Shown in pieces: positions 2,521 through 39,892 of a stretch of DNA of 40,321 nt (positions are counted from its first letter, which is position 1; each line of letters begins with the position of its first letter). The stretch covers positions 1-40,321 of the IMG/VR virus record IMGVR_UViG_3300005853_000017; one strand, written 5' to 3'. The notes below the pieces were generated by a model. It was given only the letters and a program-made list of their open reading frames with translations. It did not search any database and had not been told where the DNA came from. The translations under genes and the position numbers were made by a program. This DNA comes from a virus.

Positions 2521-2549
2521 TTGACAAACTATAAAAACTATGTTATAAC
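2521..2549 (+). promoter_or_regulatory. Sigma70-type promoter facing the repeat block
   Basis: TTGACA (2521-2526), a 17-bp spacer and TATAAC (2544-2549). It lies just after the last inverted iteron copy. No coding gene follows for 740 bp, so it may drive an untranslated RNA through the repeats, or prime replication. Confidence 0.5.
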
Positions 2550-2654
2550 AAAGCCCCGCCAAGCCCCCACCCTTGCCCCGCCTACCCCGTCGTTTTAACA
2601 GCAATGTTATCAAAAGTTTTAACAGCAGTATTATAAAGCTTAGCGATAGCTACA

Positions 2655-2870
2655 CAACTGAGAACTGTTTGCAGTAGCCAAAAGCCTCGCAAGTAGAAAT
2701 CTTTTGCAGTTGCAAATTGTTTGCAGTTAAAAACAGTTTGCAGTTGTAAAGTCTTTGCAATAGTCAATAACCTCTCAAGTGGGAACCGCTTGCAGTTGCA
2801 AAACATCTGTAATTGCAAAAGTTTCTCAAGTGAGAACTGCTTGCAGTTGAGAATTATTTGTATTTGAAAT
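2655..2870. repeat. Degenerate TTGCAGTT repeat tract
   Basis: TTGCAGTT occurs at 2704, 2721, 2738, 2790 and 2841; the first three are exactly 17 bp apart. Several copies sit in a longer degenerate unit, CTCAAGTG(A/G)GAAC(T/C)GCTTGCAGTTG (about 2775 and 2825, with weaker copies near 2655 and 2685). Many words are near-palindromic (TTGCAGTTGCAA), so a transcript could fold into several small hairpins. A minus-strand open frame across the tract is only a product of this low complexity. Confidence 0.6.
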
Positions 2871-2934
2871 TGAAATTCAATCTCAAAATGCAAAATGAAA
2901 ACGGAATTGAGACGCAATTTCAAAATGTTTTCAG

Positions 2935-3063
2935 ATAAAAAGATTTTATGACCCTTAAGTCAAAAAAGAAAAGCATAAAGAGATTTTATGATGTAAAAAT
3001 CAGAAATGTGAAGCATAAAGAGATTTTCATATAAAAAGATTTTATGACCTTTAAGTCAAAAAA
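2935..3063. repeat. 33-bp direct repeat pair with an interleaved 17-bp pair
   Basis: The 33-bp copies at 2935-2967 and 3031-3063 differ at one base (they begin ATAAAAAGATTTTATGACC). A second pair, AAGCATAAAGAGATTTT, lies at 2971-2987 and 3011-3027. ATAAAAAGATTTTAT is itself nearly palindromic. No coding potential. Confidence 0.7.
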
Positions 3064-3086
3064 TGTTTATGGTTTTGTCTTTGTTT

Positions 3087-3182
3087 ATGCAAAGAGATAT
3101 TAAAACTTTGCATGTGAAATTTAACATCACGGAGTATGTAAAAAGCATTGAAATGCAAGGACTTTCATGATGTGGTGTTAAA
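3087..3182. other. Three nested/adjacent inverted repeats (possible structured RNA)
   Basis: ATGCAAAG (3087-3094) pairs perfectly with CTTTGCAT (3106-3113). TTTAACATCAC (3120-3130) pairs with GTGGTGTTAAA (3172-3182) with one mismatch, and encloses a GCATT-GA-AATGC hairpin (3145-3156). The elements lie just upstream of the first early promoter. They could be the end of an RNA begun at 2550, or binding sites; no U-tract follows. Confidence 0.4.
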
Positions 3183-3222
3183 ATTAACATGGTGCGGGGT
3201 TTGTGGTTTTGTATAAAAGGAA

Positions 3223-3251
3223 TTGACAAACTAAAAAATTTGTGATATAAT
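3223..3251 (+). promoter_or_regulatory. Consensus early promoter P1
   Basis: Perfect TTGACA (3223-3228), a 17-bp spacer and perfect TATAAT (3246-3251). A leader ending in CCCTTAAGGAGGTG follows, just before the ATG at 3286. The same cassette recurs upstream of other small genes at both ends of the element. Confidence 0.85.
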
Positions 3252-3285
3252 AATACCTATCTAAAACCCTTAAGGAGGTGTTGCT

Positions 3286-3489
3286 ATGAGGCTAATTAGC
3301 GTTGAGCTGTTGGTGCAAGCAATAAGAGAGCAGGGTATTGATGCCATTTTTGAAAAGTTGGAGGCTCTGTTTTATACAGAGTCTTTGGCGTTTATTAATT
3401 CAGATGGAGGAGTTGTTTTTAGACCATACGACCCCGAGGAATTGTATGAATATTTAGAAATTCTGAATGAAAAGGAGGTAGAGCTATGA
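3286..3489 (+). CDS. Small unknown early protein (67 aa)
   Basis: Not recognised. A 67-residue acidic protein that looks mainly helical, starting MRLISVELLVQAIREQGID and ending ILNEKEVEL; no transmembrane segment or cysteine motif. The start is secured by AAGGAGG 8 bases upstream and by promoter P1. Its stop codon overlaps the start of the next tiny ORF (ATGA), so the two are probably coupled. Position and promoter suggest it is made early in infection, as host-takeover proteins often are. That role is inference only. Confidence 0.7.
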   Translation: MRLISVELLVQAIREQGIDAIFEKLEALFYTESLAFINSDGGVVFRPYDPEELYEYLEILNEKEVEL

Positions 3490-3596
3490 GAAAATATTTG
3501 AAAGAAATAGAGATAAGGAGTATAAAGCTATTTGACGCTGGAATAATTAGCATACTTCTTTTTGATGATTATAGCAGCATTTCTTTAGCTCTCTAA
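3486..3596 (+). CDS. Putative 36-residue peptide, coupled to the upstream gene
   Basis: ATG at 3486 overlaps the previous stop (ATGA). AAAGGAGG lies about 8 bases upstream inside the previous gene. The frame runs 36 codons (starts MRKYLKEIEIRSIKLFD) to TAA at 3594-3596 and is followed after 11 bp by a hairpin terminator. The overlap, ribosome site and terminator argue that it is translated, but it is too short to be certain. Confidence 0.4.
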   Translation: MRKYLKEIEIRSIKLFDAGIISILLFDDYSSISLAL

Positions 3597-3607
3597 AATT
3601 AAACCAC

Positions 3608-3642
3608 AAGGCAAGGCATTTAAGCCTCGCCTTTTTCTTTTT
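3608..3642 (+). terminator. Rho-independent terminator
   Basis: Stem AAGGCAAGGC (3608-3617) pairs with GCCTCGCCTT (3624-3633) with one mismatch, loop ATTTAA, followed by a T-rich tract (CTTTTTCTTTTT). It closes the transcription unit begun at promoter P1. Confidence 0.8.
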
Positions 3643-3858
3643 ACCTTGCAAGTAAGTAAATACTCACTTACCAAAGCATGGCGTGGCGTGTGAGTGAGTG
3701 TTTATTTACAAGGTGTAGCATGTGAGTGAGTGTTTATTTACAAGGTGTGGCGGTTCTCAAGCGGGGCACGAGGCACCGCAACCGAAAACGGCCACAGCGG
3801 GGGCGGGGTGGGCTTATCGTTGTTCCTACAGAAGTTCTTTTCCTACTGGGCAACCCAC
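3643..3858. repeat. 32-bp tandem repeat with an inverted partner, then a GC-rich gap
   Basis: A 28-bp sequence beginning TGTGAGTGAGTGTTTATTT is identical at 3689-3716 and 3721-3748 (period 32 bp). An imperfect inverted copy with a 4-nt insertion lies at 3643-3671 (ACCTTG...ACTCACTTAC), so a large stem-loop is possible. The remaining 3749-3858 is GC-rich, carries one more ACCGAAAA at 3781, and has no convincing gene. Confidence 0.6.
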
Positions 3859-3887
3859 TTGACTTTTGCCTTGTTTTGTGGTATAAT
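3859..3887 (+). promoter_or_regulatory. Early promoter P2
   Basis: TTGACT (3859-3864), a 17-bp spacer and TATAAT (3882-3887). Leader CACAAAACCTTAAGGAGG follows. It is nearly identical to the next promoter at 4199. Confidence 0.85.
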
Positions 3888-3914
3888 ATCACAAAACCTT
3901 AAGGAGGCGTTATT

Positions 3915-4202
3915 GTGATTTTAGGACAAACACCGAAATACGACAGAAACGACTTGAGAAGCATTATAAAAGCTCTAATTGAAGAACTAAGGCTTCTCGG
4001 AAACTACAGATACAAAATACCGAGCGAAAATGCAAGCGAAGAAGAACTTATTTCTTTATACAATGAACTCAGACACAAACTCTTGGAAGAAGCTGTTGGC
4101 GTAATGCATAGTTATGTTTGTCAGTTTCCGTATGACGATTTATTTACAGATGAAGAGAGCATGCTTAGATATTTGCTTAAACTTTTTGAAACAAAGTCTT
4201 GA
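3915..4202 (+). CDS. Small unknown early protein (95 aa)
   Basis: Not recognised. 95 residues with a mostly helical, Leu/Glu-rich pattern (DLRSIIKALIEELRLLG; SEEELISLYNELRHKLLEEAVG). It has no membrane segment and ends LLKLFETKS. GTG start at 3915, seven bases after AAGGAGG. It has its own consensus promoter, and its last codons contain the -35 box of the following gene. The position beside the ring-nuclease gene suggests an early counter-defence or host-takeover role, but nothing in the sequence proves it. Confidence 0.75.
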   Translation: MILGQTPKYDRNDLRSIIKALIEELRLLGNYRYKIPSENASEEELISLYNELRHKLLEEAVGVMHSYVCQFPYDDLFTDEESMLRYLLKLFETKS

Positions 4203-4227
4203 CTTTTATCTCGTTTTATGGTATAAT
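4199..4227 (+). promoter_or_regulatory. Early promoter P3, driving the ring-nuclease gene
   Basis: TTGACT (4199-4204, overlapping the previous stop), a 17-bp spacer and TATAAT (4222-4227), then the leader ACTACAAAACCTTAAGGAGG. The spacer and leader match P2 almost exactly, suggesting cassette duplication. Confidence 0.85.
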
Positions 4228-9291: not shown

Positions 9292-9820
9292 CCCACTTGA
9301 GACCTGCATACGCATTGCAGATAAAACTAAGCTTGCTACCGCACGGTATTTTGCCTCAGATTTTCCGTATTGGTATAACATAGGCTTAGCACATACAGAG
9401 ACAAAATGCCGATTTGTTATAAGTAAAGATGGATACGGTTCTGTAGGCTACTTTCAACTCACACCGAAATTTTTAGACCCAACACTCAGACCTTACTTTC
9501 CAAAATACACAGAAAACCACTTAGACCACTTTTATGCCTTTGCGTATTATTTACGCAGTTTATACAAAGAACCTCTTTGGATAATGTATCAGAGGTATAA
9601 TGGCGGTGATTTGGTTTTACGAGAATGTAGCAGGGCTAACAGTATGCGGTGGGAAGATTGCAAAGCACAATGCAAACGAAAAGATGTGTGCGTGTGGTTT
9701 GATGGTTTGACTTGTAAGCAATACAGAAATGCTTGCGATATAAACTACAGCTATTCCAAGAAAGTCTATCAAAACGGGCAATACTACCGCACTGGAGAGG
9801 ATAAACTGAAATTTTGGTAA
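9236..9820 (+). CDS. Exported lytic transglycosylase (endolysin)
   Basis: Cuts the glycan strands of peptidoglycan to release virions. N-terminal signal or signal-anchor MFMRLFFSLLLLWHLSLA (residues 1-18), then an SLT/lysozyme-like domain: catalytic Glu in AHTETKC (E55), DGYGSVGYFQLTP (65-77), matching the 'ESG...GaxGLmQl' pattern, and MYQRYNGGD later. The Cys-rich C-terminus (CSRANSMRWEDCKAQCKRKDVC...C) may form disulfides or bind a ligand. I chose ATG 9236 because AAGGAG lies 9 bases upstream and the signal begins there; the frame is open eight codons further. It overlaps the holin candidate, so expression is coupled. Confidence 0.85.
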   Translation: MFMRLFFSLLLLWHLSLANPLETCIRIADKTKLATARYFASDFPYWYNIGLAHTETKCRFVISKDGYGSVGYFQLTPKFLDPTLRPYFPKYTENHLDHFYAFAYYLRSLYKEPLWIMYQRYNGGDLVLRECSRANSMRWEDCKAQCKRKDVCVWFDGLTCKQYRNACDINYSYSKKVYQNGQYYRTGEDKLKFW

Positions 9821-9828
9821 GGTTGTGT

Positions 9829-9841
9829 TATATTTATTTGT
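9829..9841 (+). promoter_or_regulatory. Leaderless -10 box before the portal gene
   Basis: TATATT (9829-9834) followed by exactly 7 nt and ATG 9842. No Shine-Dalgarno. No TTGACA-like -35 at the usual distance. Confidence 0.55.
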
Positions 9842-11626
9842 ATGATTGTTTTGAATGATTACACCAACACACCATTCACTGCTGAAGAGGGTGAGTTAGA
9901 AAATTTTGCAGTAAGTATATACAACGAACTAAAAAGTTTGAATGAACCTCGTCATACGAAAGTCCGAGATTACATCAGAGAACTTAACGGAAATTCGGCA
10001 ATTACAGAACCTGAACTGGATTGGCAAAGCAATATCAAGTCAAGTCTTTTCTTTCAAAAACTCGCATTTGCTTATTACTACTTCCGCTCTCTTGTAGATA
10101 GAGCAAGTAAAAACTTGCTTACTTTCTATGCATCAGACCCATACAGCAAAATGCCGTCTATTTTGAAGAAATGCTATGACCTTGCTATATACAAGTCCGA
10201 TTTCTTTCAAGAGGTAGGACTTACATTGTTCTACGGTCTTTTGTCTGGACACCTTGCTTTGCTTATAGATACAGACCTTGAGATAGACCAGTTTGGTGAG
10301 GTTGAGAAAAAACTTATAGTAAAAGCTTTGCATCCACTGGATTTTTATGTTTCAAACGATGGTTCTTTTTACGCATATGATGTGTATGTTCCTTTTGAGA
10401 AAGCTTATAGGCTTCAAAAGTTCTGGATGATACAACCAGAGAAACTTGAACCTTATAACATATCCACATCAAAAGAAACAGTAGAGTATCTGGTAAAAAG
10501 TTCCCGCAAGCGAGCTTTTGTAAAGCTTACTTACATATACGGGCGGTATGTCAATAACGATGTAGTATCTACACCAATCAAGATAACTCTTTTGAACGAT
10601 ACTAAGCTTGTTGATGTAGAACAAATCAATCATGCAGACAATCTGATGCCAATTGTTCATACTTATTTCTATGCCTCTGACTTTCAACTAAGCTATGCAG
10701 ACTTGATATGGGACTATTACAAAGAAGATACAAGACTTTTGCGGTCTTTCATTGATAGAGTTTTGCTTAGCACAGCAACAGCTTTTGAGATATACGTAGA
10801 TGCTGTTAAACAAGAAGAGGATAAAGAAGAACTTGAAATAGCACCTTACATGGTGTTTAAAACAACTTCTCCTGACCAAGCAGTCAGAACATTCCAGCTT
10901 GCTTCAATAGACCCTAACGCATTACCGTTTAGGCAAATGATACTCATGGAAGTGCAAAATGTAAGTGCGATGTCTGAGATACTTGAAGGTAAGCCAACTT
11001 CAAAAGGCAGACCAACGGCAAAAGAGATACTTATTAAATCTCAACTGAACGCACAGTATGTAAATACTCTTATCAACAGAATTGAAGAAGAGTTTATTGC
11101 AAAGGCGGTTCGTAAGATGCTTGCGGTATTTATTCAAACATTTATAGATGAAATACCAGCAATGCTTACTCCAGAAGAGGCTCAAGAGTTTAATCTGCTT
11201 GTTAATAAAGCAATCATAGAAGACAAACCGAAATACTATTACATTGTCAAAAACATCTACAAAGGTATTACGATTAGAGTTGAAGGTCTAAGCGGTGTTG
11301 TAAGGCAGAAAGAGGAGCTTGAAAGCTTGTTATCAGTGCTTGAGTTGTTTAGTAATCTTGGTGCTTTGCCGTTCCTCAATGTGCCTATCATAGTTAAGAG
11401 AATAGCAGATATTATGCAACTACCTTCTGAGCTTGTGCGGATACCTACTCCAGAAGAAATGCAAGCGATGGCACAAGCACAAAAAGTCAAAGAAGAGAAC
11501 ATTAAGCAGTTTATCCAGCAAATCCTTTCTAACGAAGAAATGCTACAAAAAATTGTTCCTAAGTCTAAAGACCTTTTAACATATCTAAACCTTGCAATAG
11601 GAGGTAATAGCGATGCAGGTGAATGA
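9842..11626 (+). CDS. Portal protein
   Basis: Dodecameric ring at the capsid vertex through which DNA is packaged and ejected. 594 residues, in the podovirus portal range. The pattern is portal-like: an N-terminal helical region, a wing/stem with alternating helices (FQKLAFAYYYFRSLVDRASKNLLTFYASDP), MILMEVQNVSAMSEILEGKP...GRPTAKEILIKSQ (about residues 365-405), which resembles the long portal helix, and a Gln/Ala-rich C-terminal helix (EEMQAMAQAQKVKEENIKQFIQQIL). No enzyme motif. The call is supported by position in the head/packaging module. No ribosome site; TATATT lies 7 nt before the ATG. Confidence 0.8.
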   Translation: MIVLNDYTNTPFTAEEGELENFAVSIYNELKSLNEPRHTKVRDYIRELNGNSAITEPELDWQSNIKSSLFFQKLAFAYYYFRSLVDRASKNLLTFYASDPYSKMPSILKKCYDLAIYKSDFFQEVGLTLFYGLLSGHLALLIDTDLEIDQFGEVEKKLIVKALHPLDFYVSNDGSFYAYDVYVPFEKAYRLQKFWMIQPEKLEPYNISTSKETVEYLVKSSRKRAFVKLTYIYGRYVNNDVVSTPIKITLLNDTKLVDVEQINHADNLMPIVHTYFYASDFQLSYADLIWDYYKEDTRLLRSFIDRVLLSTATAFEIYVDAVKQEEDKEELEIAPYMVFKTTSPDQAVRTFQLASIDPNALPFRQMILMEVQNVSAMSEILEGKPTSKGRPTAKEILIKSQLNAQYVNTLINRIEEEFIAKAVRKMLAVFIQTFIDEIPAMLTPEEAQEFNLLVNKAIIEDKPKYYYIVKNIYKGITIRVEGLSGVVRQKEELESLLSVLELFSNLGALPFLNVPIIVKRIADIMQLPSELVRIPTPEEMQAMAQAQKVKEENIKQFIQQILSNEEMLQKIVPKSKDLLTYLNLAIGGNSDAGE

Positions 11627-11921
11627 TTATCTGCTTGTAAGTGCGGTAGCGATTAATGTTGTGCTTTTGTTTGCTTTCGTTTTTGTGGTGTTTAAGCTGA
11701 TAAAACTTCAAGCAAGGTTAGAACTTATGGAGACAAAGTTTGAAGTTCTGCATGAAAGCTTACAAGATTTGATGGAACGCATACGGAAAATTGACGATAA
11801 GATTAACATAATTAAAGAAATAGAACAGCTTGTAGAACGCATTCAGGTTAAGCGTGAAGAGGATAAAGACAAAATTAAACAATTTTTGATTAGGAAATTC
11901 AGCCATGATATGGCAGGATGA
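11613..11921 (+). CDS. Membrane-anchored coiled-coil protein (102 aa)
   Basis: N-terminal membrane segment (LVSAVAINVVLLFAFVFVVFKLI, about 8-30), then a long coiled coil (LQARLELMETKFEVLHESLQDLMERIRKI...), basic at the end. The function is unknown. The same layout occurs at 27840-28040. It overlaps the portal gene by 14 bp with GGAGG upstream. It could be a membrane-side lysis or ejection accessory. Confidence 0.75.
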   Translation: MQVNDYLLVSAVAINVVLLFAFVFVVFKLIKLQARLELMETKFEVLHESLQDLMERIRKIDDKINIIKEIEQLVERIQVKREEDKDKIKQFLIRKFSHDMAG

Positions 11922-12333
11922 TGCAATGACTTTTCAACAAGCTATGGAGAAAGAAACGAAGTTTATAAAGTTTGTCTTTCTGGACGGAGTGTATATAGGC
12001 AAGAAACTTGGAAACGAGTTGTTCTGTGATTTTCACCCGACGATTGAGACAGCAAAACTTTTGAAGCAAGTTATAAAGGTTTATAAACCAATTGTGGTGC
12101 CAGACCCTTACAAACCCACAAGAGAAGGCTTACTAACTAACACAGGACAATACATCTACTTTAGACAGTCAATTGTTTATTATGACGGCATCATTAGACC
12201 AGTTTTCTTTAGTAAGATGTATTCTTCTGACGTGTTTGATGTGCAACCTTTTTCACTGCTTGCAAGAGCTTGGAACGGCGAGTTTGATTTACAAACAGCA
12301 CAGAAAAAATATTTGGAGGCAATAACGCCATGA
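11905..12333 (+). CDS. Unknown virion-module protein (142 aa)
   Basis: Not recognised. 142 residues, mixed alpha/beta, rich in aromatic residues (FIKFVFLDGVYIGKKLG; YIYFRQSIVYYDGIIRPVFF), without membrane segments. It overlaps the gene before (17 bp) and the ATP-grasp gene after (4 bp), so it is one operon. The ribosome site at ATG 11905 is weak; ATG 11926 (MTFQQAMEK) is an alternative start. It may act with the ATP-grasp enzyme, for example as substrate carrier, but that is a guess from position. Confidence 0.65.
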   Translation: MIWQDDAMTFQQAMEKETKFIKFVFLDGVYIGKKLGNELFCDFHPTIETAKLLKQVIKVYKPIVVPDPYKPTREGLLTNTGQYIYFRQSIVYYDGIIRPVFFSKMYSSDVFDVQPFSLLARAWNGEFDLQTAQKKYLEAITP

Positions 12334-13541
12334 GAGTGCTTGTGTTTGGAACAGGTATTGAGTTTAGTCATGTGCTTGGTTTAGCTACTGCAGGGCATGA
12401 GGTGTATTACTACACTGATTACATCTCTCCGTATCCGAGTTTTGACGATTTTGCTACAGGCTTTGGTTTTGAGAATATCAAAAAGGTGCATAATTTCTTT
12501 GCTTACATAGATAAAGTAGATAAGATTGTCAGCTTTGATGTGTATGGAGGAGACTTATTTTCGTTCTTAGCAAACAAAGGATACAAGACTTTTGGAGGTG
12601 GGATAGCTACGGAGCTTGAGCTGGACAGAAAATTTCTCAAGGTGATGTTAAAATCGGTTGATGTTCCTACTCCAGAATACAAGATTGTGCGAGGTTTTAA
12701 AAATATCAAACCACCTTGTGTTGTAAAACTTTCTATCTTTCGTGGTTCTGCGGAGACCTTCTTTATAAACAACGAGGCAGAGAAACGCAATTATGAAGCG
12801 AAACTGAGAAAAGAGTTTGGAGAGTTTCTTGATAAAATAGAGTTTATCGTAGAAGAACGACTTGAATTTGACGATAGATATGTTGAAGCTGGGATAGATG
12901 CGGTGTATGACTATGAGCAAGGTGGTTTTCTCTTCCCAATGCTTTGCGGAGTAGAGTATAAAAAAGGTGTGTATATTGGTAGAGTATGCAACAGCTTGTC
13001 CGAGTTGCCAAAACCATTACAAGAAACACTGATAAAGCTTGACCTAATTTTGAAAAAGTTCAAATATAAAGGTTTTATAAGCACAGAAGAGTTTATCAAT
13101 ACACGAGGCACAGACCACTACTTCCTTGACATTACTGTTCGTTCTCCTTACCCGCTTGGACTTGGTTATAGATACGCAATAACAAATTTTGCGGATGTAG
13201 TGCTAAATGGAGCAAGACCTATGTTTAGAGATAAGTTTTACGTGGCTGTGCCTCTAAAAATTGAAGAAGCTAAAGACTTTTTTGTTTATGTTGATACACC
13301 AGACCCAGAAAAGGACGCACGCTACAACTTTGAAGCTTTGATGAAAATAAAGGGCGAATATTACATACCCAAAGGTGAAGGTATTGAAGCGTGTATATGT
13401 GAGTGCTTTTCTTCCCTTGATGAGGTTAAAATTTTGAAAACTATGGAACAGCTGGTGAAGAAGGTTTCGGCTGTATCAAAGCAAGATGATTTGCCTAATT
13501 TACCCTTTGCTTTGCGGGAGGCAAAGAAGCTATGGAGATAA
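12330..13541 (+). CDS. ATP-grasp ligase, GARS-like architecture
   Basis: ATP-grasp enzymes join a carboxylate to an amine through an acyl-phosphate. The 403 residues begin with a Rossmann-like strand (MRVLVFGTGIEFSHVLGLATAGHEVYYYTD), as in PurD/GARS and peptide ligases. Then come ATP-grasp elements: ELDRKFLKVMLKSVDVPTPEY (about 93-113), PPCVVKLSIFRGSAETFF (about 128-145, the ATP-lysine strand), FIVEERLEF(D) (about 171-180), and the metal-site region KGFISTEEFINTRGTDHYFLDITVRSPYPL (about 246-275). The substrate is unknown; the residues typical of real PurD are not evident, so purine synthesis is unlikely. It sits inside the portal/tail operon, overlapping both neighbours, so it may modify a virion protein. 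SD TTGGAGG upstream. Confidence 0.75.
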   Translation: MRVLVFGTGIEFSHVLGLATAGHEVYYYTDYISPYPSFDDFATGFGFENIKKVHNFFAYIDKVDKIVSFDVYGGDLFSFLANKGYKTFGGGIATELELDRKFLKVMLKSVDVPTPEYKIVRGFKNIKPPCVVKLSIFRGSAETFFINNEAEKRNYEAKLRKEFGEFLDKIEFIVEERLEFDDRYVEAGIDAVYDYEQGGFLFPMLCGVEYKKGVYIGRVCNSLSELPKPLQETLIKLDLILKKFKYKGFISTEEFINTRGTDHYFLDITVRSPYPLGLGYRYAITNFADVVLNGARPMFRDKFYVAVPLKIEEAKDFFVYVDTPDPEKDARYNFEALMKIKGEYYIPKGEGIEACICECFSSLDEVKILKTMEQLVKKVSAVSKQDDLPNLPFALREAKKLWR

Positions 13542-13909
13542 TGAAATACACAAGGCTTGAAGAATTGTTAAAAGAGTATGAACAGATACAGTCTTTCAAT
13601 CAAAGAAGTCTTGATATTATGTCTATTGAAGTTCAGTTTCAAGGCTACAAAAAACTGCTTGAGGAAATAGAACGAGAGAAACGCAACCTTGAAAAGCTTG
13701 AGAGACAAGCTGATGTGCTTGGTATCAAAAATCCAGTCAGAACGAAGAACGAAATAGCAACGGTGAAAGCGAAACTCCTTGAACTTGAAAAGTCCATCTA
13801 CGATGCTTTTAAATCCTTCCGTGCAAAAGAAGAAACCGCACCAGCCACCGCAATACAGATTAACATTATGACCTCTTCTCCAGATAGACCCATTGTGGAG
13901 GAAGAGTAA
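13532..13909 (+). CDS. Coiled-coil protein (125 aa), small-terminase or scaffold-like candidate
   Basis: Mostly one long coiled coil (EEIEREKRNLEKLERQADVLG, IATVKAKLLELEKSIYDAFKSFRAK) with a Pro/Thr-rich tail ending SSPDRPIVEEE. It contains no HTH that I can see, so small terminase is only a possibility, favoured by genome position before TerL. It overlaps the ATP-grasp gene by 10 bp; ATG 13541 is another possible start. It ends in the ATG of the next gene. Confidence 0.6.
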   Translation: MEIMKYTRLEELLKEYEQIQSFNQRSLDIMSIEVQFQGYKKLLEEIEREKRNLEKLERQADVLGIKNPVRTKNEIATVKAKLLELEKSIYDAFKSFRAKEETAPATAIQINIMTSSPDRPIVEEE

Positions 13910-14583
13910 TGAGTGAAGTAAAACCGACGCTTGTTAGTATTAGTGTAGATGAAGCATTACTACCATTAAACTCTTGGTTAAGCAACTTTCCATCAGGCAA
14001 ATGGATTGACGCTCAAAATAGAAACTGGTATTGGGTTATTGTGAATGTTGTTAGACTTGTATATGCTTATGAATACAGAGTAAAGTTTGATAATCCTGTA
14101 GAAAATGCCAAATTAACTTTTCCGTTTGTAGTGAAGACTTCAGACGAAGGTATTAAAAAAGTTTTCATTGATGGTGTAGAGTATCAAGTAAGAAGTAAAG
14201 AGAACTACGGTAATATGTTCATAGTGTCTGGGCAAGAGTTTAAGTTTAAGGTAGCAACGAAATACAAATTACACAAGCAAGCTGTTCCGATTTTAGCAGT
14301 TGAATATAAGCAAGCGGTTTTTAAGAGTGTGGAGTTTTCAGATTTAAACTACATCAGGTTAAGATATGCTTCTTCTGGTTTCAATGCAGTAAATAAGATA
14401 GCTACAGACTACACTACAACACAAAACGTTAGTGCAGAGTTCTTTGCTTCCAGCATTGTTCCAAGTATGTTTAGTAGTGTTAATAGCTTTTCTGTTCCAG
14501 TTATAGCTAACTGCAGAGACACATCTTGGGCAAGGTTTGGAGGTATATGGAGCTCATGCGACACATGGATGCCATTGACCTGA
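13909..14583 (+). CDS. Virion structural protein, tail-hub candidate I
   Basis: 224 residues, beta-rich (VYAYEYRVKFDNPVENAKLTFPFVVKT; VFIDGVEYQVRSKENYGNMFIVSGQEFKFKV), with no enzyme motif. It starts in the last codon of the previous gene with GGAGG upstream. The C-terminus (SWARFGGIWSSCDTWMPLT) overlaps the next gene in another frame by tens of bases, so the two products may be made together or be halves of one larger hub protein. The assignment rests on position between portal and terminase. Confidence 0.6.
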   Translation: MSEVKPTLVSISVDEALLPLNSWLSNFPSGKWIDAQNRNWYWVIVNVVRLVYAYEYRVKFDNPVENAKLTFPFVVKTSDEGIKKVFIDGVEYQVRSKENYGNMFIVSGQEFKFKVATKYKLHKQAVPILAVEYKQAVFKSVEFSDLNYIRLRYASSGFNAVNKIATDYTTTQNVSAEFFASSIVPSMFSSVNSFSVPVIANCRDTSWARFGGIWSSCDTWMPLT

Positions 14584-28408: not shown

Positions 28409-28682
28409 GTTTTTTCACCTCTCTTTGCTTTAAATTAAGCACTTTTGCGATAATTTCGTCAGGCACACCGAGTTCTTTTGCTTTACGGATATACTCTGCT
28501 TTTTGTTCTATAGGTAAAGTTCTGAGCTTCTTTCTAAGCAATCTGGTTTTAATGCTTGACCTCTCAAGCTTTTCTTTCCAGAGAATAGGTGCTATATTAC
28601 GAGGATAATCTCCGACTATGTTTGCAATTTCGTTGATAGTTAAGTAAAGTTCAGTGTAAAGCTTTTTTACAAGTTCTTCCAC
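28380..28682 (-). CDS. Helix-turn-helix-like DNA-binding protein candidate (100 aa)
   Basis: 100 residues, basic. An HTH-like segment near the N-terminus (LYLTINEIANIVGDYPRNIAPILWKEKL, about 12-39) and a second helical segment (LGVPDEIIAKVLNLKQREVKKLERSL, about 71-96) with the spacing of another HTH. Two HTHs with a basic linker could bind promoters or ends; a small terminase or late regulator are options. Overlaps both neighbours. Confidence 0.55.
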   Translation of the reverse strand: MEELVKKLYTELYLTINEIANIVGDYPRNIAPILWKEKLERSSIKTRLLRKKLRTLPIEQKAEYIRKAKELGVPDEIIAKVLNLKQREVKKLERSLSSRV

Positions 28683-29533
28683 AGCTTAGCCTCCTGCTTA
28701 GTTATATCATAATTCGCCCACAAAACTTCAACAGCTTTTGGTCTTTCTTTAGCTTGATTATACATTGTTATTCCGTATAAATGCTTAACCGCTGGAACTT
28801 CAAGTCTGAAGAAATCTTTCAGTTCCTCATCGTAAAGCGGGTTTGCATATCCAGATAAAAGCCACTTTGCTTTTGCTTGTTTTAGAATATTAAGTAGGTC
28901 TTTGTGGTCTCGTTCTGAAAAGTCTGTGTTGTAGTAATGTTCCGTGTCATAATAAGGTGGGTCTAAATAAATAAAAGCATTTTCTCTATGTGCTACTTTA
29001 TTAAGTAAATCACGAAAATCCAAACTCTCTATTAGAACATTTTTAAGTCTATTGTGTATTTGTTCTAACTCAGATAAAGCGTTGAAAAACATTTTTGCTT
29101 CGTTTTTCTTATGTTTATAAGAAAGTCTAAACGAAGAAGAATTTATTTTACCTGAAAAATTTACTCTTAACAAATAGTAAGTCTTAACAGCCAAATCAAC
29201 ATCTCCCAACTTTGATATTTTTGCATTGCGAAAATCTTCAAAAAATTGCTTTTCTAAAGCACGAGAATAAACAAGTCTATTAATCTTCTCATAAAACTCA
29301 TCAAATTTAAAAGCAACTACATAAAACAAGTTGGCAATTCGTTTATCGTAGTCATTGTAAATTTCTATAGGAGATAAAGGTTTATTTAACAGCACTTTAG
29401 CAGAACCGCCAAAAACTTCCACATACACTTCATGCTTTGGTATTAGTTTTAAAATCACATCAAGCATGTAGAACTTACCTCCTACATACGGGAAAAAGAC
29501 TAATTTACCCTTTCTCCCAAACTTCGCCAACAT
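28667..29533 (-). CDS. DNA adenine-N6 methyltransferase, D12 (Dam) class
   Basis: Transfers methyl from SAM to adenine in DNA. 288 residues from ATG 29533. Motif X FPYVGGK (14-20), SAM-binding EVFGGSAKVLL (39-49), catalytic DPPY (191-194), and the LSGYANPLYDEELKDFF block. I chose ATG 29533 because GTGGAGGAGCCAC stands before it; longer starts lie deeper in the replicase gene. It overlaps the replicase 3' end by 29 bp. No cognate restriction enzyme is near, so it probably protects viral DNA from host nucleases or marks it for replication or packaging. Target site unknown. Confidence 0.88.
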   Translation of the reverse strand: MLAKFGRKGKLVFFPYVGGKFYMLDVILKLIPKHEVYVEVFGGSAKVLLNKPLSPIEIYNDYDKRIANLFYVVAFKFDEFYEKINRLVYSRALEKQFFEDFRNAKISKLGDVDLAVKTYYLLRVNFSGKINSSSFRLSYKHKKNEAKMFFNALSELEQIHNRLKNVLIESLDFRDLLNKVAHRENAFIYLDPPYYDTEHYYNTDFSERDHKDLLNILKQAKAKWLLSGYANPLYDEELKDFFRLEVPAVKHLYGITMYNQAKERPKAVEVLWANYDITKQEAKLWKNL

Positions 29534-32500
29534 GTGGCTCCTCCACTTCAAGTTTTATTTTAGCAACTCTGTTGCCAAATTCTTCCGCTTTTTCAAGACA
29601 CCAGTCCCACGCTTCTTCCATCTTTTCTTTGATTAGCTTCGCCAAGTCTTGTGCATCTTTGCTGTCTGCTTCCACTACTATCTCATCATGCACAAGATTG
29701 ACTATCTTCAAGCTCGGTTCCTCCTGCTTTAACAATATTATAGCTTTTTTGAATAACTCCGCACCACTGCCTTGTATTTGATAGTTCAAGAGGTCTTGTG
29801 GTTTGTATGCTCGGTAGGTTCTGTTAAGCCATGTTTCGTTATCTACATACTCGTTGTATTTGAACCTTTCGTATGCTATCTGATGCTGTTCTGTGATTTT
29901 TGTGTAATATTTCTTCCACTTCTTAACAATCTCATAAGCTTGTTCTTCTGTGATGTTGATGCCGTTTGTAATACAGTGCTCCGCAAAGCCTCTTGGAGAA
30001 ATACCGTATATCAAACCGAAGTTTGCTGATTTGCCTATCTGCCTTTCTTCTTTACTTACTTCATCTATAGATTGCTTGTCAAACAGTATTGACGCTGTGA
30101 GTTTGTGAAGGTCTATGCCTTGCCTAAACGCTTCAATGAATTTCGGTTCATTCCAAATCACGCCCGCAAGTCTGAGTTCTATCTGCGGAAAGTCAGCTGT
30201 AATTAGTTTTTTGTCTTCTGTATCAAAGCCTATAAACTGTCTTAATCTGCGTGGAATTTGTTGAAGATTTATATCAGAACAAGACATTCTACCTGATGGT
30301 GCGGTGGTGGTAAAGAAGTTTCCGTAAATTCTACCGCCACTCTTCTTTGCAAGGTCATAGAGGTCTTTGGCAAAGGTTAAAGATTTTTCTATCTGCCTTG
30401 CTTCAAGCACCTTCTTAGCCATTTCGTTGCCTTGCAAAGCTAAGTCCATCAACACATCTTTTGATGAGCTATCTAATCCAAAGAACTTAGCGGTTTGTTT
30501 AGGTGAGTTATAATTGAAAGGAATTTCTTTTTGCATCTGGTTGCGGAGTTGGGTTAATCTGTATATCTCTTCTTCTAAAGCTTTAAGTTTCACTGGCATA
30601 CCGTGTTGCGATGTTTCTACAACAATTTTCTGTGCAGTTTGGTCAAGCTGATAAACAAGACTGTTTAATGTGCTTGACGAAAGCTGTTCGTAAAGCAGAT
30701 GCGGTATGTATGCATCAAGTGAGGCATAAAGTAGTTGCTGTTCGCTGAAAGTGTTATACATGTTCTGCTTGAAAGTTGTGCGAATTTTTGACTTGTCCAT
30801 CGGATATTCTATACCAAACAAATCTCGTGCCACATCATCAAGCCTAAAACCTTCACCTTTGGTTCCGTTTTGTCTGAACCTTTCGTAATGCTGAACCTTT
30901 ATCGCAAGCTGAACATCTACAATCTTCTTATCTTTGAGTTGTTCGTATGTATAACCAAGCACTCGCAAGTCAAAGTCCAAACCCCAGCCTCGTATTTCTG
31001 AGAATTTAAGTAGCCACTCTTTGAACCTTGTTGGTTTCTCTTTGAGAAGATTAAGACAATAGACTTTGCGTTCAAAGTGTGGTTGATAAATGCTTGCAAG
31101 GACTGGTCTATCCTCATCTGTCTCAAGGTCAAAGTATATCGGTTCATTAAACTTAGCTGGTATCTCATCAATGCTGTTGCAAAGCACTGGTTCCACTAAA
31201 GCTTTTGGTTGAGGTTTGAGAATTGATTTTTGTATGTTCATCATCTTAGGCGTGGTTAGTCCGTCTTCTCCTGCAAAATGTTCGTTCAACTCATCTTCTT
31301 CCTCTTCATCTTCCTCATCTTCTTCATTTTCATAATCAAACTCTTCTGTTGGTGGTAAGTCATCTGGTGGTGTATCATCGTCATCCCCTCCATTTGGTGG
31401 TAAGTCATCTGGTGGTGTATTATCATCGTTGTTATTGTTTAGAAAGTCTTTCAAGTCATCAAACTTAAAGCTTTCTACAAAAATACTATGCACTCTGCGG
31501 AGCCCTGCTTCACCGTGTATTGAAAGCATGAGTTCCGCAAAAACCTCAAGGATGCTTCTGTAGAGTTCTGGATAATGTTGCTTGATGTAGATTAGTCTTT
31601 CGTATTCTCTTGCTACCATTCCTTCAAACCAAGCGGGGTTGCGTCCTTCTACAAAAATGGAACCGAGATAAACATAACCTTTCTTACTTTCATAATATCT
31701 CATAAACAACATCTTCACATAAGGTTCTATATCCGTTGTTGGAACTTGCACACCAGCTACATCAATAAGTTTCTTCAAAGTCAAGCCTCTAATTGTTGTC
31801 TTCTTGATTGGATTATTTGATGCATTGTAGAGCCCGTCTGCAAGGTCTCTCAGATAATCAACTATCTTGCTTAGCTTGTTTTCTTCTTTTGGGAGAAGTG
31901 TATCATAGAATTTTGCAAGCACGTTGCGGATGTATTCTTCAAGTATTGCAAAAACTTCTGCTTTTTCTTCCTCAGACAAATCAAGAAATTCAAGAAATAC
32001 ATGAATTGAGGCAAAGATAAGTTTCAAATGATTGTCCAAAGACTTCACAATACCACGCAACGCCTTTGACTTTCTTTTATCAAATTCGTCTTTGAGTATC
32101 TCAACATCTTTGTAAAGCTGGGTTAAAGCCTCAATGTCTAAGTTGTTTTCAATAAAGTCTATTAGCTTGAAGATGTATCCGTGATTATACTTGAGAATTG
32201 GTAATAGTTCGCTTGTGTAGAAATCTATTAAAGCACTGTTCTTTTGCTTTGGTAGTTCATCAACATCAAGCACTATGCTTCTTCTGTATAGACCTTCTCT
32301 GTTTGCACAAAGCTTTTCTACAGACAAAGCGTTCTTCTCACCACTAAACACCACAGGCACCTGAATTGGATTAAACCGCTCATATGCTGTGTCTTTTGAG
32401 GCTTCGTTTGCTATTGCGTATATCATGTTTGCTACTTCTTCTTCTTTGTCTTTTCTCATTTTGAATTCATCAAGTGGGAGAGGCATACCTATATTACCAA

Positions 32501-36990: not shown

Positions 36991-37245
36991 TTATAAAGTT
37001 CTTTCAATATAAGATGCTGGTATATACCTTGCTATAAGCTCCGCAAACTCTTTTAAAATCTCGCTGTCTCTTCTTAAGGCTTTGTAATTATGCACAAGTT
37101 CAAGAAGTTCGCCGACGAAATATCGGATTTCGTCTGGCTTAAAACCTGTCCTGAGCTTTTCCTCTAACTCTTGCCTCACCCTATACACCTCAACTGTGGA
37201 TGAGGCTTCTAAAAGCTTGGTTATGTAGCTTGGGTTTCTCTTCAT
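36991..37245 (-). CDS. Unknown helical protein (84 aa)
   Basis: Basic/acidic helical protein (ITKLLEASSTVEVYRVRQELEEKLRTG; VGELLELVHNYKALRRDSEILKEFAELIARYI). No known domain. First gene of a transcription unit with a consensus promoter and AAGGAGGTGTTGCC ribosome site. Early expression is inferred from these. Confidence 0.75.
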   Translation of the reverse strand: MKRNPSYITKLLEASSTVEVYRVRQELEEKLRTGFKPDEIRYFVGELLELVHNYKALRRDSEILKEFAELIARYIPASYIERTL

Positions 37246-37257
37246 GGCAACACCTCC

Positions 37258-38352
37258 TTATTGGTTTTGATGTAATATATTATACCATAAACTTTGCAAT
37301 TTGTCAAGAGGCAGATTAAACTTCTTTATGTCTTGCAACCAGACTTGTCTGATTTCTTCCAACTCTTCTGAAGTCAAAAGTTGCATGCCTGTAGCTTTTC
37401 CCAGTTTCTGGAGTTCCTCCAATATTTTCTGCCTCGCTTGTAAAGTTAAAACACCTTTCCCATTAACAGCCCCTTTCCCATCCCGTCGGACTGGTAGCCT
37501 ATTTTCAGATTTATTACAAAACTCTACAAGCCAGTTTCTAAACTCATACAGTTTTCTTAAAACCTCATTATGCACTGCCTGGTTCCTAAGCGTTTTATCT
37601 TCTTTAACCACAGTGCAAACCCAACACCCAAACCGCATACCACAACCGCTACGAAATTTGTTCTTTTCTGGAATTAACGGACACTCACCTCGTGCAGTTC
37701 TGTAAAGATTTACAACATCTTCGTAAGTTCCGCCCCACGGTGTATTGTTTTGAATTAAAAACTCCCAAACCTCATCCTCTGTTATATCATACATCGGAGC
37801 AAACACTCTAAGATGGTTCCTTTCAAGTTCTATTGAATTCAACCGCCTGCTTAGTGAAACTTTTCGTGCAGTGCTTTCATCTATTCTAACCGCCACAAGC
37901 ATAAATCCATCATTAAACGACGATAAAACTTTTTTAATCGGTTTAATCTTCAGCTTATCTTGACACCAACGGAACCTAAAACTCGGCAACGGATAACCCT
38001 TTCCTATAACATTAACCCAATAAGTGTTATTAACTTCAGGTTTAGCTATCAAAATACGCACATCAAGACCAACAGTTTTACAGTAGTTTTCAACTTTATC
38101 CAAAAACCGCATAGCGTGGTTATGGATTACAGGATTTTCAACAAGAGTATCCGCATACACAACTGCCAAAGGATTAGTTTTCATCTCGCTTAGAAGCACA
38201 AGCACATGATGTAATAAAAATGTGCTGTCTTTACCACCCGAATAAGCTACTACAATTGGTTTTCCACTAAACTCCTTAAATAATTCTATCAAGCGTGCTT
38301 TTAGCTCGTCTGTTTTTGTTTTCTTTTTATGATTAAACATTTCCAACTGCAT
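37258..38352 (-). CDS. DndC-like ATP-pyrophosphatase / PAPS-reductase-family protein
   Basis: 364 residues. N-type PP-loop AYSGGKDST (36-44), VYADT (66-69 region), RFRWCQDKLKIKP (126-138), VAVRIDES..R (153-163), and a four-cysteine cluster, C224 plus CGMRFGCWVC (C237, C243, C246). The RFGCWVCTVVKEDK block is the signature I associate with DndC, the [4Fe-4S] protein that activates the DNA backbone for phosphorothioation; sulfate-assimilation PAPS reductases lack it. DndC is usually ~500 residues and works with DndA/D/E; none is in the window. Possible role: thio-modification of viral DNA or nucleotides using host sulfur donors. I chose ATG 38352, after GGAGGGAATAACG; the frame opens earlier. 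Confidence 0.8.
   Translation of the reverse strand: MQLEMFNHKKKTKTDELKARLIELFKEFSGKPIVVAYSGGKDSTFLLHHVLVLLSEMKTNPLAVVYADTLVENPVIHNHAMRFLDKVENYCKTVGLDVRILIAKPEVNNTYWVNVIGKGYPLPSFRFRWCQDKLKIKPIKKVLSSFNDGFMLVAVRIDESTARKVSLSRRLNSIELERNHLRVFAPMYDITEDEVWEFLIQNNTPWGGTYEDVVNLYRTARGECPLIPEKNKFRSGCGMRFGCWVCTVVKEDKTLRNQAVHNEVLRKLYEFRNWLVEFCNKSENRLPVRRDGKGAVNGKGVLTLQARQKILEELQKLGKATGMQLLTSEELEEIRQVWLQDIKKFNLPLDKLQSLWYNILHQNQ
37279..37307 (-). promoter_or_regulatory. Early-type promoter P4 (leftward)
   Basis: TTGACA (37307-37302), 17-bp spacer, TATAAT (37284-37279). Preceded by TGCCTC, so TGCCTCTTGACA is shared with P5 and P6. Drives 36991-37245 and probably the replication genes beyond. It lies within the 3' end of the DndC-like gene. 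Confidence 0.85.
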
Positions 38353-38680
38353 CGTTATTCCCTCCAACACTATAGCTTATTTTTAATAGCTTGTCAATAA
38401 GTTTTTCATGCAATCTAACCCATAGTCCTCTTTTAACATTTTCATAGATATTCGCATACCATATGTGAAGGTCTGGTGGAAATAAAATTAATATTTTCCC
38501 ACCTTCACCAAACCTTCGTTTTATCTCCTCAAAGTCTCTTCTCCTGATTGGTTCAAATACCTCTCCGCTCTCTTTTAATTCTCTTATAGTATCAATTATA
38601 AACCTGTTGCGAATTACACCTTGCTTGTGTAAATCGTAAATATCTTTAAAAAGATAGATTTGCAAGGCGTGTCTTGTCAT
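38333..38680 (-). CDS. Unknown protein (115 aa)
   Basis: Not recognised. Mixed helical protein with a basic centre (IRRRDFEEIKRRFGEGGKILILFPPDLHIWYANIYENVKRGLWVRLHEKLI). No membrane segment. GGAGGTGAAGCC precedes ATG 38680. It overlaps the DndC-like gene by 20 bp and the upstream gene by 4 bp, so all are in one operon. Conceivably a partner of the DndC-like protein, from position only. Confidence 0.7.
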   Translation of the reverse strand: MTRHALQIYLFKDIYDLHKQGVIRNRFIIDTIRELKESGEVFEPIRRRDFEEIKRRFGEGGKILILFPPDLHIWYANIYENVKRGLWVRLHEKLIDKLLKISYSVGGNNDAVGNV

Positions 38681-38949
38681 GGCTTCACCTCCTGTAGTTT
38701 TTTGTTGAATTTTTTAAATACTGCATACTGTAAAGTCAGCGGTGTTTTATTGAAAAACTCAATCAAATCAGCATCTTTTTCAGTTAAGAGCACTCGCTTT
38801 CGTGCTTTTCTCTGTTTTTTGAGTTCTTTTACTTCTTCAAAAGTCAGCGGTTCTAAGTTCTCTTGCAATATCTCTCGTAGCAATATCTTAGCCACCGCAC
38901 TGTGCGGTGGTTGTGCGTCAGTAAAAAGTGGTATAGATTTTTGCATCAT
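38677..38949 (-). CDS. Unknown small basic protein (90 aa)
   Basis: Basic, helical (LTFEEVKELKKQRKARKRVLLTEKDADLIEFF). No recognised domain. CTTAAGGAGGTATAACC precedes ATG 38949, almost the same leader as at 4255. Overlaps the next gene as ATGA. Confidence 0.7.
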   Translation of the reverse strand: MMQKSIPLFTDAQPPHSAVAKILLREILQENLEPLTFEEVKELKKQRKARKRVLLTEKDADLIEFFNKTPLTLQYAVFKKFNKKLQEVKP

Positions 38950-38951
38950 GG

Positions 38952-39356
38952 TTATACCTCCTTAAGTTGTTTTCTTACTTCGTTGAAATTTTCAAATAAC
39001 CAATCTAAATAATGCTTGTCTAAAATATACCTTTCAAAATAAACAAAAGCATATTTTCTGTAGTAATCATAAGACTTATTCAACATAGCATCAAACATAT
39101 CTCTAATGATGGGCATAAGCTCATCTTTAGTTTTTCTTTCAAGTGGAATATCTAAGATTTCATAACCCAGCTCTTCTAATGCATGCAACCAGTCATCTAT
39201 CTCTCTTATTCTATGTGCTAAACTTTCAGCGTAAAAAGTAAAAGGTCTAACTTCTCCGTTTCTTTCAATATAAAAGTCAAGAGTTTGACTATCACGCCAA
39301 AGCTTAACAATTTCATTATACTTTTCTGACTTCAAAATAACTACAAGTTCCAACAT
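38952..39356 (-). CDS. Unknown early protein (134 aa)
   Basis: Not recognised. Aromatic- and Glu-rich, helical (HRIREIDDWLHALEELGYEIL; NKSYDYYRKYAFVYFERYILDKHYLDWLFENFNEV). First gene after promoter P5, with CTTAAGGAGGTGTTGTC before the ATG. Two bases separate its stop from the next start. Confidence 0.75.
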   Translation of the reverse strand: MLELVVILKSEKYNEIVKLWRDSQTLDFYIERNGEVRPFTFYAESLAHRIREIDDWLHALEELGYEILDIPLERKTKDELMPIIRDMFDAMLNKSYDYYRKYAFVYFERYILDKHYLDWLFENFNEVRKQLKEV

Positions 39357-39385
39357 GACAACACCTCCTTAAGTTTTTATGTTAT

Positions 39386-39414
39386 ATTATACCACAAAAA
39401 CAAGTTTTTGTCAA
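39386..39414 (-). promoter_or_regulatory. Early-type promoter P5 (leftward)
   Basis: TTGACA (39414-39409), 17-bp spacer, TATAAT (39391-39386), leader ending CTTAAGGAGG. A GC hairpin abuts the -35. Confidence 0.87.
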
Positions 39415-39441
39415 GAGGCACGGGCACCACACCCGTGCCTC
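39415..39441 (-). terminator. GC hairpin between two promoter units
   Basis: GAGGCACGGG (39415-39424), 7-nt loop, CCCGTGCCTC (39432-39441): a perfect 10-bp stem, 8 bp after the stop of 39450-39836 and touching the -35 of P5. There is almost no U-tract on the minus strand; it may still terminate or insulate at high temperature. Confidence 0.55.
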
Positions 39442-39449
39442 AAAACTCA

Positions 39450-39836
39450 TCAGTAAAAAGCTATACTCCAGTTATGATTTTTTATAAATTTTTCCACAAT
39501 GGCTCCTATGTCCTCACCATCGCCAAACTCAATATAACTGTCTTTAGGAATAGTTATTTTACATAGTATTTCGTCTTTCTTTTCTATAACAACTTCAACC
39601 TCACCTGAGCTTTTTCTTTTTTCCGCTTCTACTACAACAAGCAGAAATGACCGTGAATCTAACTTATAAACATAACCATAATATTTGATGTTTGAAAGCT
39701 CCGCAATCCTAACAGCATTCGGTATTTCCCATATCAAATAATCTTTAGCATCGCCTACATAGTAGTGACAGTAACTGCTGTTTAACTTAAGTCTGTTAAA
39801 AGTAATACCGCTTATTTCCTTTTTCATGTTTCTCAT
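39450..39836 (-). CDS. Unknown early protein (128 aa)
   Basis: Not recognised. Beta-rich (YYGYVYKLDSRSFLLVVVEAEKRKSSGEVEVVIEKKDEILCKITIPKDSY), two Cys, no membrane segment. First leftward gene of the right end with its own consensus promoter and CTTAAGGAGGTGTG ribosome site, so probably expressed first after DNA entry. Function unknown; anti-defence proteins often sit in this position. Confidence 0.75.
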   Translation of the reverse strand: MRNMKKEISGITFNRLKLNSSYCHYYVGDAKDYLIWEIPNAVRIAELSNIKYYGYVYKLDSRSFLLVVVEAEKRKSSGEVEVVIEKKDEILCKITIPKDSYIEFGDGEDIGAIVEKFIKNHNWSIAFY

Positions 39837-39863
39837 GTTTCACACCTCCTTAAGTTTTATAAT

Positions 39864-39892
39864 ATTATACCATAAATTTAAGACTTTGTCAA
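39864..39892 (-). promoter_or_regulatory. Early-type promoter P6 (leftward, outermost)
   Basis: TTGACA (39892-39887), 17-bp spacer, TATAAT (39869-39864), leader with CTTAAGGAGG. TGCCTC again precedes the -35. Confidence 0.87.

What the first reader, a model, noticed from the sequence alone, without database searches (positions are those of the whole stretch)
37258..38352. Solitary DndC-like protein in a virus: possible thio-modification of DNA
Seen: SGGKDST PP-loop, RWCQDKLKIKP, and CGMRFGCWVCTVVKEDK with four cysteines, as in DndC rather than sulfate-assimilation PAPS reductases. No DndA, DndB, DndD, DndE, SspB or restriction partner is present. A virus could borrow host cysteine desulfurase to phosphorothioate its DNA (masking it from nucleases), or the protein may thiolate or otherwise modify bases or tRNA, or bypass a host Dnd system. 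The gene is in the early leftward operon together with a DNA methylase.
Basis: partly seen in the sequence, partly recalled or inferred. Interest (0 to 1): 0.8.

Follow-up and report, generated by a model that had tools for sequence, protein, structure and literature searches.

The report
Lone DndC-like gene in hot-spring virus
A virus of hot-spring Aquificota bacteria carries one enzyme gene of a bacterial DNA-sulfur-tagging system without its usual partners, apparently captured from a small host defence cassette, so the virus may tag its own DNA to escape host nucleases.

Summary
37258-38352(-) encodes a 364-aa PP-loop protein of the DndC type: TIGR03183 232.6 bits and PADLOC DndC 250 bits, against SspD 42 and CysH about 20. 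All five DndC cysteines are kept. No DndB/D/E was found in the record and no desulfurase homologue among its open frames. The window is a Pyrovirus-like genome (Aquificota hot-spring virus).

New here:
(1) The gene is an inserted accessory gene ("moron"). A relative (L091, Pol 86% identical) lacks it. Its last 17 codons are the promoter-bearing 3' end of the resident neighbour, and a near-copy of that promoter stands in front of it.
(2) Its closest kin (69%) is an Aquificota chromosomal gene in a 4.66-kb three-gene cassette (DndC-like, NurA-like, HerA) that a 93-95% identical genome lacks as a unit. Among 136 Aquificota genomes, that HerA occurs only in the two with this DndC-like type.
(3) A second branch of Pyrovirus-like contigs independently took another solitary DndC, from the canonical Aquificota dnd lineage, placed directly behind PolA and under purifying selection.

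Best reading: a captured modification enzyme, like an orphan phage methylase, that puts sulfur on viral DNA with host desulfurase and evades host restriction. The chemistry is untested and a decoy role is possible.

The parts
37258..38352 (-). DndC-like PP-loop sulfurtransferase, 364 aa
   Evidence: AF2 model pLDDT 86, pTM 0.85
38221..38241 (-). PP-loop SGGKDST (residues 38-44)
   Evidence: invariant SGGKDS in a 30-row alignment
37963..37974 (-). FRWC motif, C130 = Salmonella DndC C146
37681..37683 (-). C224 in GECPL = Salmonella DndC C262
37615..37644 (-). C237, C243, C246 in CGMRFGCWVC = Salmonella DndC C273, C280, C283
   Evidence: C280 needed for [4Fe-4S] and PT in DndC (PMC11662687)
38369..38397 (-). 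sigma-70-like promoter in front of DndC (TTGACA-17-TATAGT, 11/12), inside the 3' end of the upstream small gene
37279..37307 (-). perfect sigma-70-like promoter (TTGACA-17-TATAAT, 12/12) inside the 3' end of the DndC gene; ancestral promoter of the downstream replication genes, matching sequence at L091:967-999
37258..37307 (-). last ~17 codons of DndC, homologous to the 3' end of L091's 228-aa gene: insertion scar
38333..38680 (-). 115-aa resident gene into whose 3' end DndC was inserted; not a dedicated partner
38677..38949 (-). 90-aa resident gene, present in L091 without DndC; not a dedicated partner
36991..37245 (-). 84-aa resident gene just downstream, start of the replication block
   Evidence: homologue at L091:1039-1281
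28667..29551 (-). Dam-like N6-adenine methylase in the slot behind PolA that holds DndC in the second viral branch

Best explanation
The gene is a captured, solitary DNA-sulfur-modification enzyme. The virus took a DndC-like gene from an Aquificota host cassette (DndC-like + NurA-like nuclease + HerA translocase) that looks like a compact restriction-modification unit. It inserted the gene as an accessory gene with its own early promoter. Proposed mechanism: the DndC-like protein carries a [4Fe-4S] cluster on C130/C243/C246, activates its target with ATP at the PP-loop, receives sulfur from the host's housekeeping cysteine desulfurase, and places it on viral DNA, probably as phosphorothioate, early in infection, so that host HerA-NurA-type or other sulfur-discriminating nucleases read the viral DNA as self. 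Shown: gene identity, intact site residues, insertion, host kin and cassette, second independent capture, purifying selection in the second branch. Inferred: that it modifies DNA, which atom, the sulfur donor, and the evasion.
For: DndC profile scores and five conserved cysteines. Nearest kin is a chromosomal Aquificota gene, 69% over 333 aa (tree 98/97). Its cassette of DndC-like, NurA-like and HerA (HerA: PDB 7f6d, E 2e-24; NurA only 13.5 bits, E 0.05) is absent as one 4.66-kb unit from G060, whose flanks are 93-95% identical. In 136 Aquificota genomes the special HerA occurs only in the two with this DndC-like type (chance about 1 in 9,180), near it in both but in different orientations. 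Insertion scar and duplicated promoter. Second capture in L013/L065/L022, sister to canonical Aquificota DndC (100/99), no DndD, dN/dS 0.07-0.09. Precedent: PT-modified virus SNJ1 escapes DndCDEA-PbeABCD (PMC6459918).
Against: The studied phosphorothioation systems use an ATPase (DndD or SspC) and a DNA-recognition subunit (DndE or SspB) besides DndC/SspD (PMC12707154). None is present here and no substitute was identified. No chemical data exist for these viruses. The host cassette is seen in two genomes only and has no demonstrated function. The protein scores below the curated DndC cut-off and lacks the C-terminal ~65-100 residues of long DndCs.
Confidence: 0.5

Rival explanations
1. Decoy or dominant-negative: the viral DndC-like protein competes with host DndC for the sulfur donor, the DNA or the HerA-NurA partner and disables host sulfur-linked defence, without modifying anything itself.
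For: No partner subunits in the virus. The second-branch copies lack the C-terminal region of their canonical host kin (346 against 478-487 aa). The captured genes derive from two different host lineages.
Against: All PP-loop and cluster residues are intact in both branches. The window protein is about as long as its host kin (364 against 337-371 aa).
Confidence: 0.2
2. It thiolates tRNA or another small molecule (a host-takeover or metabolic function) and is DndC-like only by ancestry.
For: The fold is shared with tRNA thiolases TtuA and NcsA and with PAPS reductase. Many phages carry PP-loop proteins annotated as PAPS reductase.
Against: Sequence is DndC-type and far from CysH/TtcA. Close kin sit with a nuclease/translocase pair, not with RNA or sulfur-assimilation genes. 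In the two viral branches the slot behind PolA holds either this kind of gene or a DNA methylase.
Confidence: 0.12
3. It is a defence gene carried by the virus against competing viruses or plasmids, not for its own protection.
For: Defence genes are often inserted accessory genes in phages; patchy presence and own promoter fit.
Against: No nuclease or effector accompanies it; the HerA and NurA of the host cassette were not taken.
Confidence: 0.08
4. Unselected passenger gene, recently captured and on its way out.
For: Absent from relatives: L091 at this place, and behind PolA in L226, L227 and L229. One of three second-branch copies (L022) has a frameshift near codon 288.
Against: dN/dS 0.07-0.09, like the polymerase next to it; own promoter; two independent captures.
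Confidence: 0.1

Closest known systems
DndC of DndABCDE phosphorothioation systems (TIGR03183)
   Same: PP-loop, FRWC, GEC, SCG and RFGCWxC motifs; all five cysteines; about 35% identity
   Different: Below the curated cut-off (232.6 against 290.4 bits), C-terminal end missing, no DndD/DndE, viral gene
Aquificota chromosomal DndC-like + NurA-like + HerA cassette (L181, G056; partly L093, G003)
   Same: 69% and about 50% identity, same length class, same tree branch; no DndD or DndE in either setting
   Different: The virus has only the DndC-like gene, not HerA or NurA
Orphan phage DNA methyltransferases (anti-restriction)
   Same: Solitary modification enzyme of host origin in the early region; a Dam-like one is in the same genome
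   Different: Sulfur-transfer chemistry instead of methyl transfer
Phage PAPS-reductase-like proteins (phrog_424; Thermus phage Tsatsa, Sinorhizobium phage AP-20-A p002)
   Same: Solitary DndC-related PP-loop proteins in phages; AP-20-A's is annotated DndC (PMC13299392)
   Different: The Tsatsa group and another large phage group lack C224/C237 equivalents and branch elsewhere
SspD, BrxP, CysH, TtcA
   Same: PP-loop/PAPS-reductase fold
   Different: Only 42, 38 and about 20 bits for the first three; no TtcA profile match; CysH and TtcA on very long branches

Membership tests
DndC (TIGR03183 equivalog) | Score above the curated cut-off 290.4 | tested here: not met
   232.6 bits, E 8e-69
DndC (TIGR03183 equivalog) | PP-loop SGGKDS and cluster cysteines (Salmonella C146/C280/C283) | tested here: met
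   S38-S43, C130, C243, C246
DndC (TIGR03183 equivalog) | Second cysteine pair (Salmonella C262/C273) | tested here: met
   C224, C237
DndC (TIGR03183 equivalog) | Full length to the C-terminal end of the 447-position model | tested here: not met
   Match ends at position 380-386
DndABCDE system | DndD ATPase and DndE in the same locus | tested here: not met
   No TIGR03185 match in the record; no DndE-profile hit in window ORFs
DndABCDE system | Phosphorothioate in DNA | not testable with these tools
   needs LC-MS of viral or plasmid DNA
CysH/PAPS reductase | Best match to CysH models and placement with CysH | tested here: not met
   18.7-20.5 bits against DndC 232.6; E. coli CysH on a branch of 8.7 changes/column, not with the window
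TtcA tRNA thiolase | Placement with TtcA | tested here: not met
   No TtcA model matched; branch of 10 changes/column, not with the window
SspD | Best match to SspD model, SspB/SspC partners | tested here: not met
   42 bits against DndC 250 bits; no Ssp proteins among the ten ORFs scanned there
Viral orphan modification enzyme (anti-restriction) | Modification-type enzyme without cognate nuclease, of host R-M kinship | tested here: inconclusive
   Host kin in a cassette with HerA and NurA-like, neither found in the virus; but that the host cassette is an R-M system is inferred
Viral orphan modification enzyme (anti-restriction) | Protects viral DNA from a host nuclease | not testable with these tools
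   needs an infection or transformation assay

The most novel reading that the evidence does not exclude
Aquificota carry a minimal three-gene sulfur-based restriction-modification cassette (DndC-like modification enzyme plus HerA-NurA nuclease, without DndD/DndE). Their viruses have repeatedly stolen DndC genes, from this cassette and separately from canonical dnd, as stand-alone enzymes that sulfur-modify viral DNA without any Dnd partner.
Probability: 0.33. Interest if true: 0.85.

Novelty: new variant of a known kind. Interest (0 to 1): 0.62.

Why it matters
DndC is known as one subunit of a complex that works with DndD and DndE. Two independent captures of DndC alone by related hyperthermophile viruses, and a host cassette that pairs a DndC-like enzyme with a HerA-NurA nuclease, suggest that this enzyme can work, or interfere, without them. 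That makes the minimal requirements of DNA phosphorothioation directly testable with small thermostable proteins. It would also add sulfur modification to the known viral escape routes from restriction.

Tried and rejected
Partner proteins next to DndC: rejected, since the 115- and 90-aa neighbours are resident in a relative without DndC. Gut 'phage' records with high similarity (MT836308, MT838064, MT838014): they are dnd-operon fragments with DndB and/or DndD/DndE beside DndC, not solitary phage genes. Short length as a mark of solitary DndC: rejected, since many short cellular DndCs have DndD beside them. Housekeeping HerA as the explanation of the HerA-DndC adjacency: rejected, since 69 Aquificota genomes have a HerA relative, but only G056 and G003 have the full-length 657-aa type, and G056 has both. 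My DndE profile drifted to HerA/FtsK proteins, so its ~500-aa hits are not plain DndE. No solved DndC structure was found by sequence. A single-protein scan of viral contigs found nothing; the alignment scan found 227 relatives. No plasmid carries the NurA-like protein. A helicase search of Aquificota genomes found no provirus.

Full report
WHAT IS THERE. The window is a 40,321-bp IMG/VR virus record. Its 1608-aa primase/helicase-PolA polyprotein and divided gene blocks match the Pyrovirus group of Aquificota hot-spring viruses (PMC7689252). A related record, L226, has exactly the published length of TGBSV/GBS41, 41,208 bp; identity with it is inferred from length. The flagged gene starts at ATG 38352 behind a GGAGG and encodes 364 aa. 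That paper's main text does not mention DndC, phosphorothioation or PAPS.

IDENTITY. DndC models give 232.6 bits (TIGR03183, cut-off 290.4) and 250 bits (PADLOC); SspD gives 42, BrxP 38, CysH about 20. Residues C130, C224, C237, C243 and C246 correspond to C146, C262, C273, C280 and C283 of a Salmonella DndC. C280 is needed for the [4Fe-4S] cluster, and the C280S mutant lost phosphorothioation (PMC11662687). The AF2 model is confident (pLDDT 86, pTM 0.85). Its nearest solved folds are PAPS reductases and the [4Fe-4S] tRNA thiolases TtuA and NcsA. E. coli CysH and TtcA sit on very long branches and not with the window.

SOLITARY. My DndB, DndD and DndE profiles hit no window ORF. The DndD family model matched none of 13 records searched, including the window and the second-branch viruses. 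Two cysteine desulfurases used as queries found no homologue in the Pyrovirus ORF set.

HOW IT GOT THERE. In L091 (Pol 86% identical) the same place holds one 228-aa gene. Its residues 119-220 match the window's 115-aa gene at 38333-38680, and its last residues LDKFQNLWYNIIHQIHQNQ match the last residues of the window's DndC, LDKLQSLWYNILHQNQ. The Aquificota homologue L093 lacks this tail. The tail DNA is a perfect sigma-70-like promoter (TTGACA-17-TATAAT, 37307-37279), and a matching sequence is in L091. An 11/12 near-copy stands directly before DndC (38397-38369). So DndC entered the 3' end of a resident gene and is flanked by two copies of the promoter region. An alternative order of events, deletion in L091 between the two copies, is less likely, because the tail belongs to the resident gene and not to DndC kin.

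WHERE IT CAME FROM. In a tree of 52 proteins the window groups with L181 (98/97), then with L093 (84/99). L181 is a chromosomal locus of an Aquificota genome, G056 (contig 1.52 Mb). Identity is 69% over 333 aa. It lies next to a 400-aa NurA-like protein (Pfam NurA, 13.5 bits, E 0.05, below cut-off) and a 657-aa HerA (PDB 7f6d, E 2e-24). A close relative, G060, aligns at 93-95% on both flanks but lacks 9325-13980, which holds just these three genes, with 62 bp in their place. The cassette therefore comes or goes as a unit. Of 136 Aquificota genomes, 6 have a DndC relative at E<=1e-20: three canonical operons with DndB-C-D-E, one degraded copy, and G056 and G003. The full-length 657-aa HerA type occurs only in G056 and G003. 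Shorter HerA relatives occur in the other genomes with a match (69 in all), including a second one in G056. If independent, the exact coincidence would have a chance of about 1 in 9,180; relatedness is not corrected for. In G003 HerA is divergent from DndC-like; in G056 DndC-like is convergent with NurA-like.

SECOND CAPTURE. Contigs L013, L065 and L022 have a solitary DndC directly behind PolA; L013 shows a split primase and PolA, as the paper describes for AJCSV/ACSV. These DndCs are sister to the canonical Aquificota DndCs L182-L184 (100/99), not to the window type. They keep all five cysteines, are shorter (346 against 478-487 aa), and show dN/dS 0.07-0.09, like PolA (0.07). L022 has a frameshift near codon 288. 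Relatives L227 and L229 have no DndC behind PolA, and none was found in the part of L226 held. In the window and L092 the slot behind PolA holds a Dam-like methylase.

MECHANISM. Known: PT-modified viral DNA escapes a PT-based system (SNJ1 against DndCDEA-PbeABCD; PMC6459918), and IscS can stand in for DndA (PMC10853773). HerA-type translocases act in antiviral complexes with nucleases, and HerA-NurA has been proposed to be antiviral (PMC12977600). From this I infer that the cassette is a compact modification/nuclease unit and that the virus took its modification half. The main gap is the absent ATPase and DNA-recognition subunits, which studied systems use (PMC12707154). HerA, a viral helicase or the host could supply these; this is not shown. 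Cellular DndC without DndD also exists in operons with a desulfurase, a GmrSD-type nuclease and an SNF2 helicase (L106; similar layout by ORF order in L119 and, without the desulfurase in view, L095). So DndC without DndD is not unique to viruses.

VERDICT. The interpretation as a sulfur-based DNA modification is the best reading at about 0.5. A solitary DndC-type protein in a phage is not new as such (AP-20-A p002, PMC13299392; Thermus phage Tsatsa). New are the viral group, the insertion anatomy, the host cassette, and the repeated capture from two host lineages. No paper in the held library contains HerA, NurA and DndC together.

Noticed in passing
L106:6712-12348, L119:6619-12255, L095:67-3095: Cellular DndC without DndD, followed by a GmrSD-type (DUF262) protein in L106, with a cysteine desulfurase before it and an SNF2 helicase after it (L106, L119): a possible separate DndC-based restriction arrangement. 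Only the L106 proteins were scanned with Pfam.
   Followed up: partly
L183:9324-10760(-), L184:9787-11223(+): Two canonical Aquificota DndCs, in operons with DndB/D/E, have lost both C262- and C273-equivalents together (GEP, TGG/SGG); the Tsatsa-type phage proteins lack both too. The pair seems to come and go as a unit.
   Followed up: partly
L022:478-1560: The solitary DndC of this viral contig has a frameshift near codon 288; intact copies exist in L013 and L065.
   Followed up: partly
window 2521-4227 (+) and 37279-39892 (-): Several near-perfect sigma-70-like promoters (TTGACA-17-TATAAT, often with TG before the -10) lie near both ends of the window; four perfect copies in the window.
   Followed up: partly
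L026-L041 and L042-L087 (viral contigs): Two large phage families of DndC-related PP-loop proteins; the first keeps all five cysteine positions but has CP in place of CT after the last one, the second lacks C224/C237. Function unknown.
   Followed up: partly
L003:1710-2669 (Thermus phage Tsatsa), L032-L034: A DndC-related 'PAPS reductase' shared by Thermus phage Tsatsa and related viral contigs, without Dnd partners: another thermophile virus group with a lone gene of this kind.
   Followed up: partly
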